A DNA stretch of 64,000 bases, taken from NCBI GenBank assembly GCA_964036665.1, contig OZ038528.1, positions 1,488,001-1,552,000 of the forward strand. The letters are read 5' to 3'. This stretch comes from Gordius sp. MW1 (taxonomy: Eukaryota > Nematomorpha > Gordioida > Gordea > Gordiidae). Within the stretch, counting starts at the first letter, position 1. Every line of letters begins with the position of its first letter. The position numbers and the translations under genes were made by a program. A model generated the notes under the pieces. That model had not been told where the DNA came from. It ran no database searches and saw nothing but the letters and a program-made list of their open reading frames with translations. This document shows positions 182 to 63,672 of this stretch, piece after piece.

Positions 182-3380
<3,199 letters not shown>

Positions 3381-4415
3381 CTGCAAAATACAAAAAAATA
3401 TTAAAAATTTAATTTTTTCAAATTTTTCACATTATCTTAAAATATTTTTTAAGCACTAATAGAGGCTTATTTCCAAATAAATGTGTATGATACATGCAAA
3501 CAATATTAGATTAATGAGCTGGCATAGAGCCATGAATTGAAATTGTATTGGATTTAATCATGACAACAATTATTAGAAATAATAAAATTGTGTTTAGCCC
3601 CCCTCCCCAACTGCTATTATTTTCATTTTAAAGAGATATAAAATAACTTTAAAAATCTTATATTATTAATATAATAAATTTGTTTTTTTCAATTTTAGGG
3701 CAAAATTAAAGAATAATATACCTTCTGGGAATATATTTCATCTTTTCAAGATATAAATCCTTTTACGAAAAAAACAATCAAAATTAAAGCCGAAAAACGA
3801 AAAGTGAGGAGAAAAGTGGTGTAAATTTTAAATCTGGGGAAAACCAATCGATAAATGTGTAATTTTTGTATGCTAGGAATGCGCTAGGCGACTCAAAAAT
3901 TTACTATTGGTCAGCACTATGGTCACGTTATCAAAATGTCCATCGGACAAAAAATCAATATATGAAATTTAAAATCAATTTTATTTTCAAAAATCAAATA
4001 TTAAGTAAAACGTTGTAAAAGTAATTAAAAACCAATCTTTTGATATATTGTAAAAGAAGCAAACATAATGTTTTTTTAAATTAAAAATTTTCCCCCTTTC
4101 AAATTAATAAAGCATCCAAACGAAATTACTTAAAAAATAGACTCAAAATGTATTTATAACATTATTAAATGTAAGTCTTAAAAAAACTTAATTTGCAATT
4201 TTAAAACAAATTTTAATTTTGAATCAGCATAAACGCGATACCTAAAAATGTTTAATAAAATCGCTCTTAAAATTAGTGTAACATTTCAATTAAAATTTAC
4301 TTGAAGCTCTAATAAGCGAATTTAAATTAATTTTAATTCAAAAAAAAAATAGTTTTTTTTAAAATTAAATTTCTGTTTTTATAGCCCCCGTCCCTAAAAA
4401 AAACTGTAAAACGTG
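3381..4415. other. Gene-poor AT-rich stretch with a fragment of repeat D
   Basis: No exon recognised. About 3478-3565 matches part of repeat D (compare 24030-24100 and reverse 55010-55095), including the block around GCATAGAGCCATG. It may be 5' intron sequence of the KLC gene. Confidence 0.45.
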
Positions 4416-31444: not shown

Positions 31445-32545
31445 ATAATTATTAAACATATGGACTTTTACCATAAGTGTAACCAAATTTGAAAAAGGGG
31501 GGGGGGCGAGACAGTCAGATGATTGTGGGACATCAAAATAGTAATTTTTTGTAATTTTAGCCAATTTTTTAATATTTAAATATATTAATTAAAGGAGAGG
31601 ATATTACCTTTTTAGTTTCATCATTCAAAGCCCGGTCTTAGGCTGTATGTTTATGCCCATTTAGGGATCTCTATACTGCCGTATAAATTTTTTCAAATCT
31701 ACTATAATAGAAATCTACGAAGAACGGTAAAGGATGATACAAATATCAGAGTATTTACTTACCTATTTAATAATGTGAGAATATGTTTATTAGAAAAGAC
31801 GAATATTGTTAAGCCTGAAAATAAGGTGCGAAAGGTTTTAAAATAAGCGATAGTTGGTTTACAAGCAGCGATAGCACAAATACAATTCATTATCGATACC
31901 ATGTCAACCATTAAGTGAATGATATAGATTACCAATAAATGTTTCTATGACGATGAGCCTCTAAGAACCATAAGTATTATTAACGTCGATAGTCTTATAA
32001 GAGGATGAGGTTGTTTTTATTATTTTTCTATCGTGTATCACTGACTTTACTTGTTTTTTGAATGTTCAATCAAGTTTATTTTTATAAAAATTTGCACAAT
32101 AATATTCGGAAATATTATAATGATGGAGGTATAAGCTTTTGTAAAAAAATTTGATTAAAAAAATAAAATGTATTTCTCTTTCTAAGTGTATAAGTGTCTT
32201 ATAATCTTTTATGCTGCTACCCTTTTATTAATACTACTGCATATATGGATTAATTTTCTAACAAAACTATAATAATTTAACGCATTTAATTTGTTTATTA
32301 ATCAAATATTTTTTTTCTTCAAATTTTGGCCAAAGGCAGGCCTAATCTTAATTATGCAACTAGGGTTAGACTTATATTTACCTTTTTTGGTTTAAGCCCT
32401 AATAAATTGAATCTTGGTTGCGCGCAACAATGTTTTGATTTCGCTACAAATTGAATGGTTGTGTATTCGTGGCATCATATGATCGTTAGTTATAATGAAA
32501 GTTGACGTACCAAGTCAAACGATATAAAGACACTAAATATAAAAT
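31445..32545. other. Intergenic sequence upstream of the FLYWCH gene
   Basis: A 13-G tract near 31497-31506; otherwise AT-rich with no recognised gene. Confidence 0.4.
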
Positions 32546-32546
32546 C

Positions 32547-32690
32547 TCTAAAAATCTCTAAAAATCTCTAAAAATAACTAAAAATCTCTAAAAATAACTA
32601 AAAATCTCTAAAAATCTCTAAAAATAACTAAAAATCTCTAAAAATAACTAAAAATCTCTAAAAATAACTAAAAACCCTAAAAACACCTAT
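32547..32690. repeat. Minisatellite just upstream of a start codon
   Basis: About twelve alternating units of AAAATCTCTA and AAAATAACTA. It ends about 10 bp before the ATG of the FLYWCH gene, so it occupies the 5' UTR or promoter. Confidence 0.9.
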
Positions 32691-32696
32691 TGTAAT

Positions 32697-34081
32697 ATGA
32701 ATCACGTTCATTTTACTCAATCCCAAAAAAGAAAACCAATTTTAGTTTATCAAAATCATCATTATACAAAGGTCAATAATGGGACAGATTCAAAATCTTA
32801 CTACAGATGTAGGGTAAATGAATGTGGTGGCAGAGGTTTCTATTCAGATGCAAGGTTTACAATGACACGTGCACATGACAATCTCCCACATAAAAGTATG
32901 TTAATATTAATTTTACTTATTATATTATAGAGTACCCTAATTATGGATTGATACCTTCAGATCTACCTATATCCCATTTGAGTAATTTAATTTAAAAACT
33001 TTTATCATCATTTCTTTAGACAGTGGATCTATACAAACATCCTACTTAAATGATGCAACAAATCTACCTATATCCCTTTTGAGTAATTTAATTAAAAAAC
33101 TTTTATCATCATTTCTATAGACAGTGGATCTATACAAACATCTTACTTAAATGATGCAACAAATCTACCTATATCCCTTTTGAGTAATTTAATTAAAAAA
33201 CTTTTATCATCATTTCTTTAGACAGTGGACCTATACAAACATCTTACTTAAATGATGCAACAAATCTACCTATATCCCTTTTGAGTAATTTAATTAAAAA
33301 ACTTATATCATCATTTCTATAGACAGTGGATCTATACAATCATCTTACTTAAATGATGCAACAAATCTACCTATATCCCTTTTGAGTAATTTAATTTAAA
33401 AACTTTTATCATCATTTCTTTAGACAGTGGATCTATACAAACATCCTACTTAAATGATGCAACAAATCTACCTATATCCCATTTGAGTAATTTAATTTAA
33501 AAACTTATATCATCATTTCTATAGACAGTGGATCCATACAATCATCTTACTTAAATGATGAACAAATCTACCTATATCCCATTTGAGTAATTAAATTTAA
33601 AAACTTATATCATCATTTCTATAGACAGTGGATCTATGCAATCATCTTACTTAAATGATGCAACAAATCTACCTATATCCCATTTGAGTAATTTAATTTA
33701 AAAACTTATATCATCATTTCTATAGACAGTGGATATATACAATCATCTTACTTAAATGATGCAACAAATCTACCTATATCCCATTTGAGTTATTTTATTT
33801 AAAAACTTATATCATAATTTCTATAGACAGTGGATCTATACAATCATCTTACTTAAATGATGCAACAAATCTACGTATATCCCATTTGAGTTATTTAATT
33901 TAAAAACTTATATCATAATTTCTATAGACAGTGGATCTATACAATCATCTTATGATGCAACAAATCTACCTATATCCCATTTGAGTTATTTAATTTAAAA
34001 ACTTATATCATAATTTCTATTGACAGTGAATCCGTTTATATGTATTTACATTCTCATGAATCAATTACAACCATATAAATA
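32697..34081 (+). CDS. FLYWCH zinc-finger protein with tandemly repeated exons
   Basis: Exon 1 (32697-32895) encodes a FLYWCH-type finger: FTQSQKRKPILVYQNHHYTK, then YYRCRVNEC and AHDNLPH supply the C-C-H-H ligands. FLYWCH domains bind DNA or proteins. A 35-bp intron (GTATGT...TATAG) leads to exon 2 (32931-32981, KYPNYGLIPSDLPISHL). Then come ten near-identical 63-nt exons, each starting and ending in phase 1 and each followed by a 38-bp intron. They encode 21-residue units (NSGSIQTSYLNDATNLPIS plus HL or LL). A diverged last unit reads to a stop at about 34079-34081, but its acceptor is TTG rather than TAG. Unit 6 has a 1-nt deletion. Splicing is predicted only, and whether all or some units are included is unknown. 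Confidence 0.65.
32982..34022 (+). repeat. 101-bp tandem array of exon plus 38-bp intron
   Basis: The predicted exons lie at 33020-33082, 33121-33183, 33222-33284, 33323-33385, 33424-33486, 33525-33586, 33625-33687, 33726-33788, 33827-33889 and 33928-33984. The period is exactly 101 bp, except 100 after unit 6 (1-nt loss) and 95 after unit 10 (6-nt in-frame loss). Each unit has TTTCT(A/T)TAG before ACAGTGG and GTAATT or GTTATT after CATTTGA. Units 1-4 read CTTTTGA and units 5-10 CATTTGA, so the array has at least two sub-families. Confidence 0.9.
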
Positions 34082-34682
34082 AAATTTATTTCTAGTTTTT
34101 TATAAATTTTTATAGTAAGGTGTGTTTTTCATCTTAATTATTAATCACAATCTTATTAATATATATTGCCAATTCTAGTTTAGGTTTAAGGAAATCAAAT
34201 ATCACTATCTTCAAGGATCTATTTGTAAAAAGAAATTAATAAAATAATTTTCTGTAAAATAAATGTTGCTTGCTTGTTATGATTAGTCCTTGAAATAAAA
34301 CTAAAAGATCATTTGATAATGTTTATTTACAAACATAAACAATAAAATCTCAAAATAAAATTTATATGCCCAGTAATAAGAAAAGATCTCTCTATTTTTA
34401 ATAGAACTTTAACAGACTAAATATTTACAATTCTTAACCTTAACTACATTTCCAATTCAATCAAAAATTATATCTAAGCCAATTTAAATTTTTTATTATA
34501 TAATAAACTTTACTAATTTAAATAAACTAATACAATTAGAGTTAGGCAATTATAATTAAATTAATTTTTTATGCTAAAGATTTATATTATAATATCCTTG
34601 CACCCTTTTTTTATATAATACCTTTTATACTAAAATATTGTCTATTATTTTATTTATTTTTATATTTTAAATATGTACCTAA
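34082..34682. other. AT-rich spacer between FLYWCH and TJAP1-like genes
   Basis: No exon seen. An in-frame TAA directly precedes the start codon at 34683. Confidence 0.5.
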
Positions 34683-36744
34683 ATGCGGTACTATGAAACG
34701 TTTGACTTTATAACGTTTGACCCGGATTCGAAAGTTGATACTATGGAAGAGGTTTTATTGGATAAATATGAAAGGTGAGTATATTCAACTTTTGCAATAT
34801 AAAATTTAGGCTTTTAAAAAATCATCAATGTTTACAGGATATAAATAATGATTTAGAGTCAAAAATTTTGACATTAGTGGAAAAATATGAAAAAGAAAAG
34901 CAGGAAAATCTTGAGAGAATCCAAGTATTATCGAGGCAAGTCTACAACCTTTCGACAGCAATATCAGAGATAGAAAAAGAAAATGTAATCAATATTTATA
35001 TAGGTTATATGTAATCATAAAATTTAAAAATGGATTTCAACATTATCATTTCTAAATTTTCTTATTTCATTAAAATCGATTGTTATTTTTAACATATATT
35101 TATATTGTGTGTAATTTTTAAGTTAGTACATCATAGAAACCAAGATTTTTTTATAAAGTTTTATATAGAAACCTGTGTATGTTTTAAAATTAAAAATTAT
35201 GTAATTTGAACTGTAACAACTAATTAGGACTTTTTCTTTCATCTCTATGTAGGTTGAAGTCAGCATGGAACATTAATAATTGATATGTTTTATAATAAAG
35301 TCAAGCAATTTTATCTCCATGTTAAATAAATATTACAATCAATGGGTTATATTTGCTTAGGCATAATTAGGACTTGATAAATGATAGACAAGATTTATTA
35401 GAACTCATTTTAATAAAAATGCTTTCCATACTTTAAAACTGTAAAATTAATAATTTCTTTAAAAGTCTATTTCTTTGGTATAATAATTCTAAAATCTCCT
35501 GTTGGCTATTTAATAAAAGGGATACCTTGCCAGACCAATCCATACTATATGTACAGTAAATGTATATTTAATATTTGCTAGCATCAAATCAAATATTTTG
35601 GCACCATTCAGCTAGGTTTGACATGTTAATTTTGTGTTTAAGTGCAAGAGCTTTATAAATTAAATATCTCTCATCTTAACATTTAAAATGACTTATGACT
35701 TAGATTCTTAACAAACTTTTTATTTTTTTAGGAGCGCTACAAGAGGGATTGCAGTTTAGCCGTTCATTTGCTACGTTGTAAGCCCAATAGTTACGTCGAT
35801 CAACGATTCAATTCGGTGAGAACTGAGCATAAATCTTAAATTTATAAATGGATGAGTTTTAAAAGTAATGTTCAAAAAGGATTCCATGGCTTTAAACCCA
35901 AAATTATAACCCGTTTTTAGATAAATTAATTAAATCTTAGTTTAGATCCTTTATTGTGATTTTCATACTATATTAGACAAATTAAAACTAAACAAGATGC
36001 AAACTAACTTGTGTTATATCAATAACAATCATTTGCCATAATTTTAAAGTTTTTTAATTCTCGAGACAATAAAGATAAGCAAAAAATTTAAAATTTGCTC
36101 TAAGTTTTAAACCCTAGATTAAATTTTTTTTTAAATTCTTGATATGGTAAAGAATATGTTATAAAAAATGGATAAAAGTAGCTCAATATTCTGAAATAGC
36201 TCTTGAAATCAGGATTTTTACATTGGGACCTGATTGTTAAAAGAAAATTAATTAATTTTTTTTCTATCCATTTGCCTTTTTAATCTAGCTCCCCGAAGAC
36301 TATCAAAAACGGCTAGAAAATCGTGGTTGGACAGAAGAATACTCACCCAACCCGAGCCAAGGCCATAGTTTTTTCACTGGTTCAACTTTTCCCCCAACTG
36401 CAGCCGGGGCTCTGTTTTTAACCCAAACTTCTGCTGCAAACTCCGATAGGCTTAGCCATATGGGAGCAAATAGTTCAGATAACTCAATTTGCCCAAAATG
36501 TGCTAAATGCTATGCGGGGCAGGTTGTGCCCAATGTGTTGGTCGCGAATTTATTGCTGGAAAGTTATTACAATTCTCAATATATGCCGAACCAGGTAGTT
36601 GACGACAGCGCGTTGGGCTGTTTGAAAAATGAAGGTAGTCATCACAAAAAAAGTAGCAGTTTGGGCCTGTTTAAAGATGCTTGCGAAGTGGTCTCTTCGA
36701 AACGCATACTAAGCGACCAGAAATTAAATGATCGAATTCTATGA
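34683..36744 (+). CDS. TJAP1/BEGAIN-type coiled-coil protein
   Basis: Four exons (34683-34774, 34810-34984, 35732-35815, 36289-36744) give 268 residues in one frame. The N-terminus MRYYETFDFITFDPDSK precedes a coiled coil (DLESKILTLVEKYEKEKQEN). The junction EKEN-ERYKRDCSLAVHLLRCK matches the family hallmark ERYRxDCxLAVQLLKC of tight-junction-associated protein 1 and BEGAIN. LPEDYQKRL follows at the expected position. The C-terminal 150 residues are unlike the vertebrate tails and include CPKCAKC. Family members are membrane- or junction-associated scaffolds (known from vertebrates). The first intron is only 35 bp. The start is fixed by an in-frame stop just upstream. Confidence 0.85.
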
Positions 36745-57094: not shown

Positions 57095-59230
57095 TTACGG
57101 AGTATGATATTGAATAAAACAATTAATATGTAGACCGATGTTGCATTTTGTGTATATGATTTTCGCGGATTTATGGCATAGGCCACACCTCCTTTGTGTG
57201 GGGTTCTTTGCGGGCCAATGCTCGCGATTATCAAACCGCACCTCGGCATAAACATTGCTTGCAGGCCTTGGATATACGGTCCTCAATCGCGGAATGTTCG
57301 GAACAAATCACAAAGGGACTGTAATCTTCCGCAAAAAATTTAAAAGGGGAATCCCTTTATGAACTTTCCGGTATAACAGCCACGAATTAACGACTGCAGC
57401 GTTAAGACAAAAACGTATTAGGGGCCAATACCATTTATTTGATCGTATTCCAACACGATATGAGCCATGAAACTTGTCGAAAAGGTCAACACCCCCCATT
57501 CCCTTATTGTATTCGCTGATTAGGGTTGGTTGAGGAATGGTAATCCTACTCTTGGCTGATCTGCTATACCTAGTGCACTTCGTGAGTGTACTTGCTAGAC
57601 TATCTGTTCGATTTGTTGCCAGGGTCACCTGGCTATTATCATTCCTTCTATACAATTGTATATTTGTATCCTTTGCCCTAAGAACTTGCCAGGCTCCCCT
57701 AGGCGCTCTTTTTAGATCTTGGAGAGGGGCCTTTTGAATACTGTCGGCTCGTATTGTTCCTTTATCATTCCATCAATACAATTGTATATTTGTATCCTTT
57801 GCCCTAAGAACTTGCCAGGCTCCCCTAGGCGCTCTTTTTAGATCTTGGAGAGGGGCCTTTTGAATCCTGTCGGCTCGTATTGTTCCTGTTAATTGAATTG
57901 AATCTTTCGCCAACTCTTCCAATAATGGTAAAGAATTAAAAAAGTTATCAATAAATATGTGACTATTTGATGGGACAAACCCTGTAACCAGCTTTTTTAC
58001 AACGGCGGAACCAAGGGGTACTCCTGGTTCTCGTTCCTCACGTCCTTCATATAATTTGAAACGACAACAATAACCATTGGGCTTGTTCAAGCACCAAAAC
58101 TTATACCCAAATCTTATGGGCTTACCACGTATAAATTGCTTTAAATGAAACCTACCATAGTATGGTTCCATGGCTTCATCTAAAGAATATATTGTGGGAT
58201 TAGGTTCAATATATTTTTCGAATTTTTTGTTCATATAATCCATCAAAACATTGACCTTTTTCAGGCTTCCAATTTCCAGGTTGCAAGTGTTATCCGAAAA
58301 ATGAAGATATTTGAAGATCGCTTGAAAGCGATCTCTGGAAATACAATTAGCAATGGCTATGTTATTAACATCTGCTTGCGTTTCCCAATACAGACGTTTT
58401 TTAGGTAGTTTAGAGTAGCCTGATACTAGTAAAACACCAAGCAATTTATACATTTCCTCACAAGTCACTTCAAAGGTTTCATCACTATATTTATATTTGG
58501 CATATTTTTTACTCTCTTTGCATATGAGCTCAATTAAGTCAGTATCCCAAAACAATTGAAAAACTTGTAAGGGTGTAAGAGAAGATTTTTGTATTTCAGT
58601 TAAAATGTTGGGAGCATTCTCTTGTAAATTCTGTAATTTAAGTTGTGCATGTTCCTTTGTTTCTAGCACAAGTTTAATTGATTTCCATGTTAAGAGTTTT
58701 TGCTTTTTATAAGGATTTTTTTTTAGATGTGGACACTTTGTTTATAGATGGTAACAGCATTTCAGTGTCAAGGTGATTTATTTCATTATCATTGTTTGTT
58801 ATAAGCACCTCAGCTTTCTTTGATAATACACCAGGTCCTAATTTATGAGGATCATTAATAAAAACTTCAGTTTCATCTTCTGAATTTCATCATAATCTGT
58901 ATCATAACCATCAACAGGTGGAATAAGGGCTAAATCAATGGCTTGAACGTTGCTCAATAAAGTACTATCTGATTCTAAAAGTGTAAGGACTTCTTCTGTA
59001 TTTAAAAGCCTATAGTGTGAAAATTACTACATCAATTTTTAAAAGCTTATATAAATATGAAATATGCTTAATATCGTATAAATTATAAATCATTTTTTAT
59101 AGATTAAGAATATGCAAATGTAATTAGTTAAATGTTTATTATATAGAAGTTTGTTAACATATACTTACAAAGAGTCTGAATTTTTCAAATTTTCAAAAGT
59201 ACGCTTTCTTTTATTGGTTATAGAAGCCAT
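57095..59230 (-). pseudogene. piggyBac transposase, broken
   Basis: Exon 1 (59169-59230, MASITNKRKRTFENLKNSDS) is joined over a GTAAGT intron to exon 2 from 59009. The body shows the DDE_Tnp_1_7 fold. Visible motifs are YSLDEAMEPYYGRF (first catalytic Asp), GYKFWCLNKPNGYC, HIFIDNFFNSLPLLEEL (second Asp) and YNKGMGGVDLFDKF (third Asp). The C-terminal Cys finger is RRCGLCHKSAKIIYTKCNIG with HINC. Breaks: frameshifts near 58885 and 58722, an in-frame TGA near 57767 created by a 126-bp tandem duplication, and another TGA near 57318. No TTAA-flanked ends were found, so it is a decayed transposon copy or a dead domesticated gene. Confidence 0.92.
57652..57893. repeat. 126-bp tandem duplication inside the piggyBac gene
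   Basis: ACAATTGTATATTTGTATCC starts at 57652 and again at 57778, with near-identical sequence through the GAGGGGCCTTTTGAAT block. The period (42 codons) keeps frame, but the junction codon after IQLY is TGA. Confidence 0.95.
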
Positions 59231-60676: not shown

Positions 60677-60715
60677 CTGCTAAAACCGCTTGGAATTCGA
60701 ATATTAATGTTAATT

Positions 60716-62355
60716 TAACTAGTTTTGGGGTTAGAATCCCGGAGTTTTTTTTGACTTTTATGATTGTTCTTGTTACTATCATTGATAATAAGAATTTTTG
60801 GCCGTCCGCTGGCTGCTGACCAATGAAAAAAATGACCATTGGCCAAAATGTGAATCGAAATTATTTTTTCGTTTTTTTTGACTATTATGATTGTTCCTGT
60901 TTCTACCATTGTTATTATGACTTTTTGGCCGTCCGCTGGCTGCTGACCAATGTTATATAATAAACATAAATAAAAGTTGTTTACTTTTAATTGCTATGCA
61001 ATTTAACTAGTTTTTGGGTTAGAATCCCGGAGTTTTTTTTGACTCTTATGATTGTCCCTGTTTGTTCTTGTTACTATCATTGATAATAAGAATTTTTGGC
61101 CGTCCGCTGGCTGCTGACCAATGAAAAAAATGACCATTGGCCAAAATGTGAATCGAAATTATTTTTTTCGTTTTTTTTCGACTATTATGATTGTTCCTGT
61201 TTCTACCATTGCTATTATGACTTTTTGGCCGTCCGTTGGCTGCTGACCAATGTTATATAATAAACAGAAATAAAAGTTGTTTACTTTTATTTGCTATGCA
61301 ATTTAACTAGTTTTTGGGTTAGAATCCCGGAGTTTTTTTTAACTCTTATGATTGTCCCTGTTACTACCATTGCTATTATGACTTTTTGGCCGTCCGTTGG
61401 GTGCTGACCAATGAAAAAAATGACCATTGGCCAAAATGTGAATCCAAGTTTATTTTTTCGTTTTTTTTCCGACTATTATGATTGTTCCTGTTACTACCAT
61501 TGATAATAAGACGTTTTGGCCGTCCGTTGGCTGCTGACCAATGAAAAAATTGACCATTGGCCAAAATGTGAATCCAAGTTTATTTTTTCGTTTTTTTCGA
61601 CTATTATGATTGTTCCTGTTACTACCATTGATAATAAGACGTTTTGGCCGTCCGTTGGCTGCTGACCAATGAAAAAATTGACCATTGGCCAAAATGTGAA
61701 TCCAAGTTTATTTTTTCGTTTTTTTTCGACTATTATGATTGTTCCTGTTACTACCATTGATAATAAGACGTTTTGGCCGTCCGTTGGGTGCTGACCAATG
61801 AAAAAATTGACCATTGGCCAAAATGTGAATCGAAATTTTTTTTTTCGTTTTTTTTCGCTAACACTGATTTATAGACCATCTGTTGGAACTGACCAATTAA
61901 AAAAAATGACCATTGGCCAAAATGTGATTCGAAAATTTTTTTTTTGTTTTTTGTTTTGACTCTTATAAATTTATATCCACTTTTACCGTGTCCTGGCTGC
62001 TGACCAATGAAAAAAATGACCATTGGCCAAAATGTGATTCGAAAATTATTTTTTCGTTTTTTTGACTATTATGAATTTATAACCACCTCTACCCTGTCCT
62101 GGCTGCTGACCAATTAAAAAAATGACTTATATCATTTTTGAATATCTATACTATTTTATTTTTAGATATCTTATTAATAAATCTAATTATTATTACATCT
62201 TATTTTTAAAAGTCATATTTTTTAATATCTAACGCATTTTTATATATTTAAATTTTATTTTCAAAAATTTTTATTATAAGCCACAAATGATTGTTCTTGT
62301 TCCTACCATTGATAATAAGCCTTTTTGGCCGTCCGTTGGCTGCTGACCAATAAAC
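60716..62355. repeat. Satellite with ~129-bp period
   Basis: Units contain TTGGCCGTCCG(C/T)TGGCTGC, TGACCAATGAAAAAA and TGACCATTGGCCAAAATGTG. Starts of AATCCAAGTT at 61441, 61571 and 61699 show periods of 130 and 128. The first units (60716-61320) form a longer higher-order repeat with AACTAGTTTTTGGGTTAGAA. Because 129 is divisible by 3, overlapping minus-strand frames stay open (repeating FFIGQQPTDGQNVLLSMV), but the variable period argues against a protein. Confidence 0.9.
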
Positions 62356-63165: not shown

Positions 63166-63494
63166 TAAAATATTTAAACTCATTTATTTATAATTATTTA
63201 TGCATTAGGGTATATATTTTTTCTTTTTAACTTTCTTTTTAGGTTTTCTATGAAATCACAATCTAATTAAATGAAATATATTAACCCAGTAAAAAAATAT
63301 ATATACTTTTATAAGGTTAAAAATATATTACATAGTTGGCTGTCTTAGCCAAGGGGGAAACCCTAGTAATTATCCTACCCCCTATAGGGATTCTAGCCCC
63401 TCTCACCTTTCTCGCCCATAAATTGCATAGCAAATAAGCTATATTTATACGTAGAATAGATGAGTCGTCCCCTCTTCCCTTCTCCCCCTTCTCC

Positions 63495-63672
63495 GGGGGT
63501 CTGGGGGCGGAGCCCCCAGGAGATGGGGGTTTGGGGGCGTAGCCCCCAACGGGGGTTTGGGGGCAGAGCCCCCACCGGGGGACTGGGGGCGGAGCCCCCA
63601 GCAGGGGGTTTGGGGGCGAAGCCCCCAAGGGGGTCTGGGGGCGAAGCCCCCAGTTACGCCCGAAGGGCGTAT
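63495..63672. repeat. Array of GC-rich palindromes
   Basis: Six successive palindromes (C/T)TGGGGGC-NN-AGCCCCCA(G/A) separated by GGGGG-rich linkers, followed by ACGCCCGAAGGGCGT. Loops vary (GG, GT, AG, GG, GA, GA). The outer pair changes as C-G or T-A in five units. This is an island of very high G+C in an AT-rich region; the open frames on both strands are by-products. Confidence 0.92.

What the first reader, a model, noticed from the sequence alone, without database searches (positions are those of the whole stretch)
32697..34081. Tandem array of ten 63-nt exons with 38-bp introns attached to a FLYWCH finger
The satellite period of 101 bp divides into a 63-nt segment with canonical flanks (TTTCTTTAG before, GTAATT after) and a 38-bp remainder, the same size as proven short introns elsewhere in this window. 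Every unit is phase 1-1, so any number can be spliced in without changing frame. The preceding exon 2 ends in the same LPISHL peptide and the same donor, so the array looks like amplification of an exon. Unit 10 lost exactly 6 nt, keeping frame. This would be a variable-length repeat protein built by exon number, or a source of splice variants.
Basis: partly seen in the sequence, partly recalled or inferred. Interest (0 to 1): 0.88.

Follow-up and report, generated by a model that had tools for sequence, protein, structure and literature searches.

The report
Jumping genes with repeated mini-exons
The repeat is part of a jumping gene, and related jumping genes in this animal carry rows of tiny, interchangeable exons that appear to build a stretchable linker in the enzyme that moves them.

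Summary
The array is real: 10 tandem units (eight exons of 63 nt, one of 62, one of 57) with 38-nt introns behind a FLYWCH exon. It is not an ordinary host gene. It lies in a 2,224-bp non-autonomous Mutator-like (MULE) transposon copy, 32506-34729, with a perfect 9-bp target duplication. In longer copies the array runs, through in-phase exons, into a second FLYWCH finger and a MULE transposase. The window copy lost the transposase by a deletion at a 7-bp match, has a frameshift in unit 6 and lacks the last acceptor.

Of 23 related loci fetched, 22 have a tandem array upstream of the transposase. Unit sequences differ between families, yet a blind intron choice gives 3n, phase-1, open exons in 10 of 17 unit types (1.3 expected; reverse strand 0 of 17). 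On average the phase-1 frame alone encodes Ser/Thr/Pro/Asn/Gln-rich, charge-poor peptide. One relative reads array and transposase in one 871-aa frame.

Against: within arrays, exons are not more conserved than introns, and no RNA data were available. Best reading: variable-number symmetrical mini-exons that encode a flexible linker in a transposase.

The parts
32497..32505 (.). target site duplication, left (GAAAGTTGA)
   Evidence: identical 9 bp on both sides of the element
32506..34729 (+). non-autonomous MULE transposon copy, 2,224 bp
   Evidence: ends shared with dispersed copies and 9-bp duplication
32506..32529 (+). left terminal inverted repeat, imperfect
   Evidence: 17 of 24 positions match the reverse complement of 34706-34729
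32541..32683 (+). subterminal 10-bp tandem repeats, 14.4 copies
32697..32895 (+). exon 1, FLYWCH zinc finger (FLYWCH1), donor GTATGT, phase 1
   Evidence: Pfam PF04500 E 1.1e-5; model
32931..32981 (+). exon 2, 51 nt, phase 1-1, ends like the array units
33020..33984 (+). array of ten mini-exons (63,63,63,63,63,62,63,63,63,57 nt) with 38-nt introns
33525..33586 (+). unit 6, 62 nt: one base fewer, frameshift
   Evidence: a 62-nt exon occurs in other short copies too
34022..34028 (+). deletion junction: GACAGTG shared by an array unit and the transposase 3' end
   Evidence: comparison with long copy L017
34022..34078 (+). remnant of the transposase C-terminal codons and stop
   Evidence: resembles the L017 3' end
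34706..34729 (+). right terminal inverted repeat, imperfect
34730..34738 (.). target site duplication, right (GAAAGTTGA)

Best explanation
The window holds a deleted copy of a FLYWCH-MULE DNA transposon. The gene plan of this lineage is: FLYWCH1 exon, one or more short exons, a tandem array of symmetrical phase-1 mini-exons (usual length 51-114 nt) with introns of about 32-54 nt, a short conserved exon, then FLYWCH2 and the MULE transposase. Because units are 3n and phase 1, they can be gained or lost without breaking the transposase frame. The array is spliced and translated as a repetitive, charge-poor, Ser/Thr/Pro/Asn/Gln-rich linker of variable length between the two zinc fingers. Shown: transposon identity, gene plan in relatives, frame and phase regularity, frame-specific peptide composition, unit-number variation between copies. 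Inferred: actual splicing, translation, the linker role, and unequal exchange or gap repair as the way unit number changes.
For: Transposon: perfect 8-9-bp duplications at 16 of 18 end pairs, window included (one alternative pairing of L015 dropped; 4 of 21 loci gave no end pair). FLYWCH and MULE Pfam matches in long copy L017. Gene plan: a phase-agnostic search gives 14 introns in L017, all phase 1 (exons 11x63, 51, 69), and 102 of 118 phase-1 introns over the 10 of 27 loci that gave an open path. Arrays in relatives: 11 of 11 loci picked for an upstream FLYWCH, 11 of 12 picked from the transposase list without that criterion. Blind intron choice: top pick is 3n, phase 1 and open in 10 of 17 unit types against 1.3 expected; reverse strand 0 of 17; 3 other window repeats on both strands 0 of 6. 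Exon lengths that differ from the array's usual one differ by 3n in 16 of 26 cases (P 0.003), intron lengths in 2 of 13. Five long copies: 55 of 55 array exons are 63 nt, while 8 of 18 short-copy arrays contain a non-3n exon. Composition: STPNQ 54% in phase 1, 28 and 33% in the other frames, 11-26% on the reverse strand, means of 20 arrays. L048: array, FLYWCH2 and MULE in one 871-aa open frame.
Against: No transcripts. Pooled pN/pS about 0.72, exon divergence not below intron divergence, and no excess of third-position changes (28, 38 and 35 variable sites at positions 1, 2, 3). In 7 of 17 unit types the blind top intron does not keep the frame, and in one of the ten that do (L038) it is not the intron of my hand model; three types (L039, L049, one of L044) also fail the top-three test. 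The 17 types are partly related and off-mode exons recur within arrays, so P values are optimistic. Introns for the 20 decomposed arrays were chosen by hand with the frame in view, so the totals 155 of 165 3n and 159 of 165 open are descriptive, and the composition test rests on the same choice. In one search, 7 loci gave no open path and 10 lacked two recognisable fingers. L037, L042 and L045 were not decomposed. Another MULE lineage (L054) has upstream tandem repeats that do not fit the model.
Confidence: 0.74

Rival explanations
1. The array matters as DNA: a minisatellite inside the transposon that binds the transposase or affects silencing; its open frame is tolerated, not used.
For: Exon and intron parts diverge about equally within arrays. 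Of 38 places matching the right end, 36 lie within 8 kb of an array match (32 within 3.5 kb); the two others are fragments of 273 and 40 bp (compared), so array-less derivatives were not seen. Other MULE-type elements are reported with minisatellites or subterminal tandem repeats (passages of PMC6446971 and PMC5225508).
Against: Unit sequences differ between families, while phase 1, 3n length and a composition specific to one frame recur; a DNA-only role does not predict this. The short copies may simply descend from one deletion.
Confidence: 0.13
2. Chance or neutral satellite: AT-rich tandem repeats inside a transposon that happen to look like exons and introns.
For: AT-rich sequence offers many GT and AG. 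One of three other MULE loci has upstream tandem repeats that fail the exon model, so arrays can occur there without being exons.
Against: 10 of 17 against 1.3 expected, reverse strand 0 of 17; 871-aa frame in L048; composition specific to one frame; long copies keep every counted array exon in frame.
Confidence: 0.04
3. Deleted copies such as the window one are expressed as a FLYWCH1-plus-array protein without transposase that regulates the full element, like truncated-transposase repressors of other DNA transposons (recalled).
For: The window copy keeps exon 1, exon 2 and the array; leaving out unit 6 gives an open frame. A short copy on another contig matches at 100% (rounded) over 1,385 bp, so the short form itself seems mobile.
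Against: A non-3n exon is found in 8 of 18 short-copy arrays and 0 of 5 long ones, as expected if short copies are not kept for coding.
Confidence: 0.08

Closest known systems
Phantom MULE transposons (with Muta1 of Aedes and Tm1 of Meloidogyne)
   Same: FLYWCH plus MULE transposase, 8-10-bp target duplications, intron-containing genes (passages of PMC6446971, PMC3169594, PMC5225508)
   Different: The passages mention one FLYWCH and 2, 3 or 7 exons; the minisatellite noted for aphid Phantom lies after the transposase ORF. Here two FLYWCH fingers flank a tandem mini-exon array.
Rehavkus elements
   Same: DNA transposon, 9-bp target duplication, carries a minisatellite (PMC6446971 passages)
   Different: PHD finger, minisatellite before the 3' TIR; no exon array in the passages seen
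Schistosome micro-exon genes (MEGs)
   Same: Most of the coding region made of very small symmetrical exons, allowing variants (PMC4350168 passages)
   Different: MEG products are described there as secreted or gland-associated; here the unit is a tandem repeat inside a transposase gene

Membership tests
MULE superfamily | MULE transposase domain | tested here: met
   PF10551 in long copy L017, E 5.5e-7, above cut-off; absent from the window copy itself, which lost that part
MULE superfamily | 8-11-bp target site duplication | tested here: met
   9 bp at the window copy; 8-9 bp at 16 of 18 end pairs
MULE superfamily | terminal inverted repeats | tested here: met
   short and imperfect, 17 of 24 positions
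Phantom clade | FLYWCH finger with MULE transposase | tested here: met
   PF04500 in FLYWCH1 and FLYWCH2 exons
Phantom clade | phylogenetic grouping with named Phantom transposases | not tested
   no named Phantom sequence was at hand; the protein search returned none at E<=1e-3
Schistosome MEG | most coding sequence in very small symmetrical exons | tested here: inconclusive
   symmetrical small exons in the array; the transposase exons are larger
Schistosome MEG | non-transposon gene | tested here: not met
   the array is part of a mobile element with a transposase
Rehavkus | PHD finger transposase with minisatellite near the 3' end | tested here: not met
   FLYWCH fingers and an array 5' of the transposase domain

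The most novel reading that the evidence does not exclude
A whole lineage of transposons builds its transposase around a tandem mini-exon array, re-amplifying a new unit in family after family, so that linker length or the set of isoforms is changed by exon number at no cost to the reading frame.
Probability: 0.4. Interest if true: 0.88.

Novelty: new variant of a known kind. Interest (0 to 1): 0.78.

Why it matters
One genome here offers over a dozen parallel arrays of exon-intron units, in mobile copies that serve as replicates, so how exon arrays arise, homogenise, lose introns and stay in frame becomes directly testable. It also suggests a transposase layout that my searches did not find in print: two zinc fingers joined by a repeat linker of variable length.

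Tried and rejected
Rejected: an ordinary host repeat-protein gene (dispersed copies with target duplications). Disfavoured: pure chance. Led nowhere: the protein database search with the FLYWCH2-MULE exon gave 85 candidates, none at E<=1e-3. The organism was not identified; the first bases of C1 and the last of C4 are TTAGGG-type repeats, which from recalled knowledge argues against a typical arthropod or nematode. The repeat-peptide search of the genome added nothing; its rows were not checked one by one. Expected but not found: stronger conservation of exon than intron within arrays. L051, the one of 12 transposases without an array, has retroelement-like reading frames upstream and may be a truncated copy.

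Control with other MULE lineages (high-ranking PF10551 hits that are not among the rows listed): 3 loci of 2.7 kb only; two show no tandem repeat, one (L054) has repeats that do not fit the exon model.

Corrected on checking: a 100-bp unit spacing is not always a short exon; in L013, L019 and L024 no exon is short and a 37-nt intron is present, so the long-versus-short comparison now rests on exon lengths.

Literature: PMC6446971, PMC3169594, PMC5225508 and PMC4350168 were seen as passages only; other papers as search listings. The original Phantom paper is not held. The statement that no mini-exon array in a transposase was found rests.

Full report
1. What is in the window. Tandem Repeats Finder gives a 101-bp period, 10.7 copies, 95% matches at 32961-34032. 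Read as exon and intron, ten units lie at 33020-33984 with 38-nt introns; eight are 63 nt, unit 6 is 62 nt and unit 10 is 57 nt. Exon 1 (32697-32895) is a Pfam FLYWCH finger with a phase-1 donor, and exon 2 (32931-32981, 51 nt) ends like the units.

2. It is a transposon. A search of the whole genome with 32697-34081 gives 57 matching stretches on 8 contigs, only the best candidates being scored; one besides the window matches at 100% (rounded) over the whole query. Flank comparison shows shared ends at window 32506 and 34729 (its output was cut in the middle). GAAAGTTGA flanks both ends. Of 21 loci examined for ends, 17 gave end pairs; 16 of 18 pairs have perfect 8-9-bp duplications, L018 and L027 have none, and one alternative pairing of L015 was dropped. 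In L012 one copy lies inside another in opposite orientation, each with its own duplication.

3. The long copies explain the array. L017, L021 and L025 carry about 2.5 kb more between array and right end, L019 about 1.4 kb; L022 has the transposase exon but no matched right end. In L017 this part encodes a second FLYWCH (PF04500, E 6.8e-6) and a MULE domain (PF10551, E 5.5e-7). Read by eye, the array is followed by a 69-nt unit, a 63-nt exon and an acceptor directly before the FLYWCH2 exon, all phase 1; a search that was not told a phase finds 14 introns, all phase 1, with exons 11x63, 51 and 69. The window copy is a deletion derivative: its 3' part joins the array to the transposase's last codons at GACAGTG, which both partners share.

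4. Relatives in the same genome. The FLYWCH2-MULE exon finds 152 matches, down to 32% identity in the listed rows, with 150 of 473 candidates scored. I fetched 11 places where an upstream FLYWCH had been found and 12 chosen by me across identity levels from the transposase list without that criterion; neither choice was random, and some loci belong to one family (L029 with L030, L031 with L040, L035 with L036, L038 with L041). All 11 of the first set (irregular in L037, 2.3 copies in L033) and 11 of 12 of the second have tandem repeats upstream of the transposase. Of these 22, 18 were decomposed into exon and intron, besides the window copy and L017; L037, L042 and L045 were not, and L044 only through its unit consensus.

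5. Exon signature. With introns chosen by hand, 155 of 165 exons are multiples of three and 159 of 165 open in phase 1; because I had the frame in view, these totals are descriptive. Less dependent on that choice: exons whose length differs from the array's usual one differ by a multiple of three in 16 of 26 cases (P 0.003, not independent), introns in 2 of 13. In a blind test a splice-site matrix, built from 13 introns outside the arrays, picked the intron in each of 17 unit types: the top pick gave a 3n, phase-1, open exon in 10 of 17 against 1.3 expected from dinucleotide shuffles (P 8e-8); with the top three near-best picks 14 of 17 against 1.9; reverse strand 0 of 17. Three other tandem repeats of the window, both strands, gave 0 of 6. 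For L038 the successful top pick is not the hand-model intron. The types are partly related, so P values are optimistic. The phase-agnostic gene search gave an open path in 10 of 27 loci, with 102 of 118 introns in phase 1, 11 in phase 2 and 5 in phase 0; 7 loci had no open path and 10 lacked two finger motifs. The matrix includes flanking introns of that region, but no array intron and no phase.

6. Coding signature. The phase-1 peptide is 54% Ser/Thr/Pro/Asn/Gln and 5% charged in the mean of 20 arrays; the same exons in the other two forward frames give 28 and 33%, on the reverse strand 11-26%. The FLYWCH2-MULE exon of L017 has 25% and 29%. In L048 array, FLYWCH2 and MULE lie in a single 871-aa open frame, its 39-nt introns being stop-free, which ties the array frame to the transposase frame without assuming splicing.

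7. Long against short copies. In the window's own family, five long copies have 55 array exons, all 63 nt; of 18 arrays in copies not seen to have the long part, 8 contain an exon that is not a multiple of three, the window's included (intervals of 130 nt or more between introns were left out of the count). This is what loss of constraint in non-autonomous copies would give, though several short copies may share one ancestral lesion and the long copies may be close kin.

8. Results against. Within arrays, pooled pN 0.031, pS 0.042, intron core 0.028 (19 arrays), and variable exon sites fall 28, 38 and 35 on codon positions 1, 2 and 3: little constraint on the peptide, no excess of intron change. 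Unit peptides show no detectable similarity (z>3) in any of 36 locus pairs with at least 100 aligned transposase residues, 11 of them at 60-79% identity (15 of 24 loci yielded a transposase string, 10 of them with a unit; L046 and L047, at 79%, may still be related by eye). Close relatives such as L029 and L030 do share units (one search list). So either units diverge very fast and are homogenised within each array, or arrays were made anew; I cannot tell which.

9. Mechanism proposed. Symmetrical phase-1 units make unit number free to change; copies differ in number, and in L019 and L025 FLYWCH1 itself is duplicated in frame into the array. I infer unequal exchange or gap repair, splicing of all or some units, and a flexible linker between two zinc fingers. 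The role of the linker is the weakest step.

10. What is known. Phantom-type MULEs with a FLYWCH finger and few exons are described (PMC6446971, PMC3169594, PMC5225508; passages), with a minisatellite after the ORF noted for aphids. Small symmetrical exons are known from schistosome MEGs (PMC4350168, passages). My searches listed no report of a mini-exon array in a transposase.

Noticed in passing
L048 (reverse strand, oriented 1048-3660): 871-aa open frame through the array units, FLYWCH2 and MULE; the 39-nt introns are stop-free multiples of three, so splicing or retention would both keep the frame.
   Followed up: partly
L019, L025: FLYWCH1 exon duplicated in frame within the array (spacings 337-340 bp), giving three and two FLYWCH1 copies.
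   Followed up: partly
L038, L041, L035, L036: Some units look as if an intron was lost in frame, giving exons of 150-153 or 114 nt.
   Followed up: partly
L054 230-1484: Another MULE lineage also has tandem repeats upstream (104- and 42-bp periods); they do not fit the 3n phase-1 exon model.
   Followed up: partly
L012: One copy of the element inserted inside another in opposite orientation, each with its own 9-bp duplication.
   Followed up: no
window 57636-57887, 60712-62126 and 63494-63652: Other tandem repeats; units from 57636, 61332 and 61889 served as controls, otherwise not studied.
   Followed up: no
L052, L053: The start of C1 and the end of C4 are TTAGGG-type repeats.
   Followed up: partly
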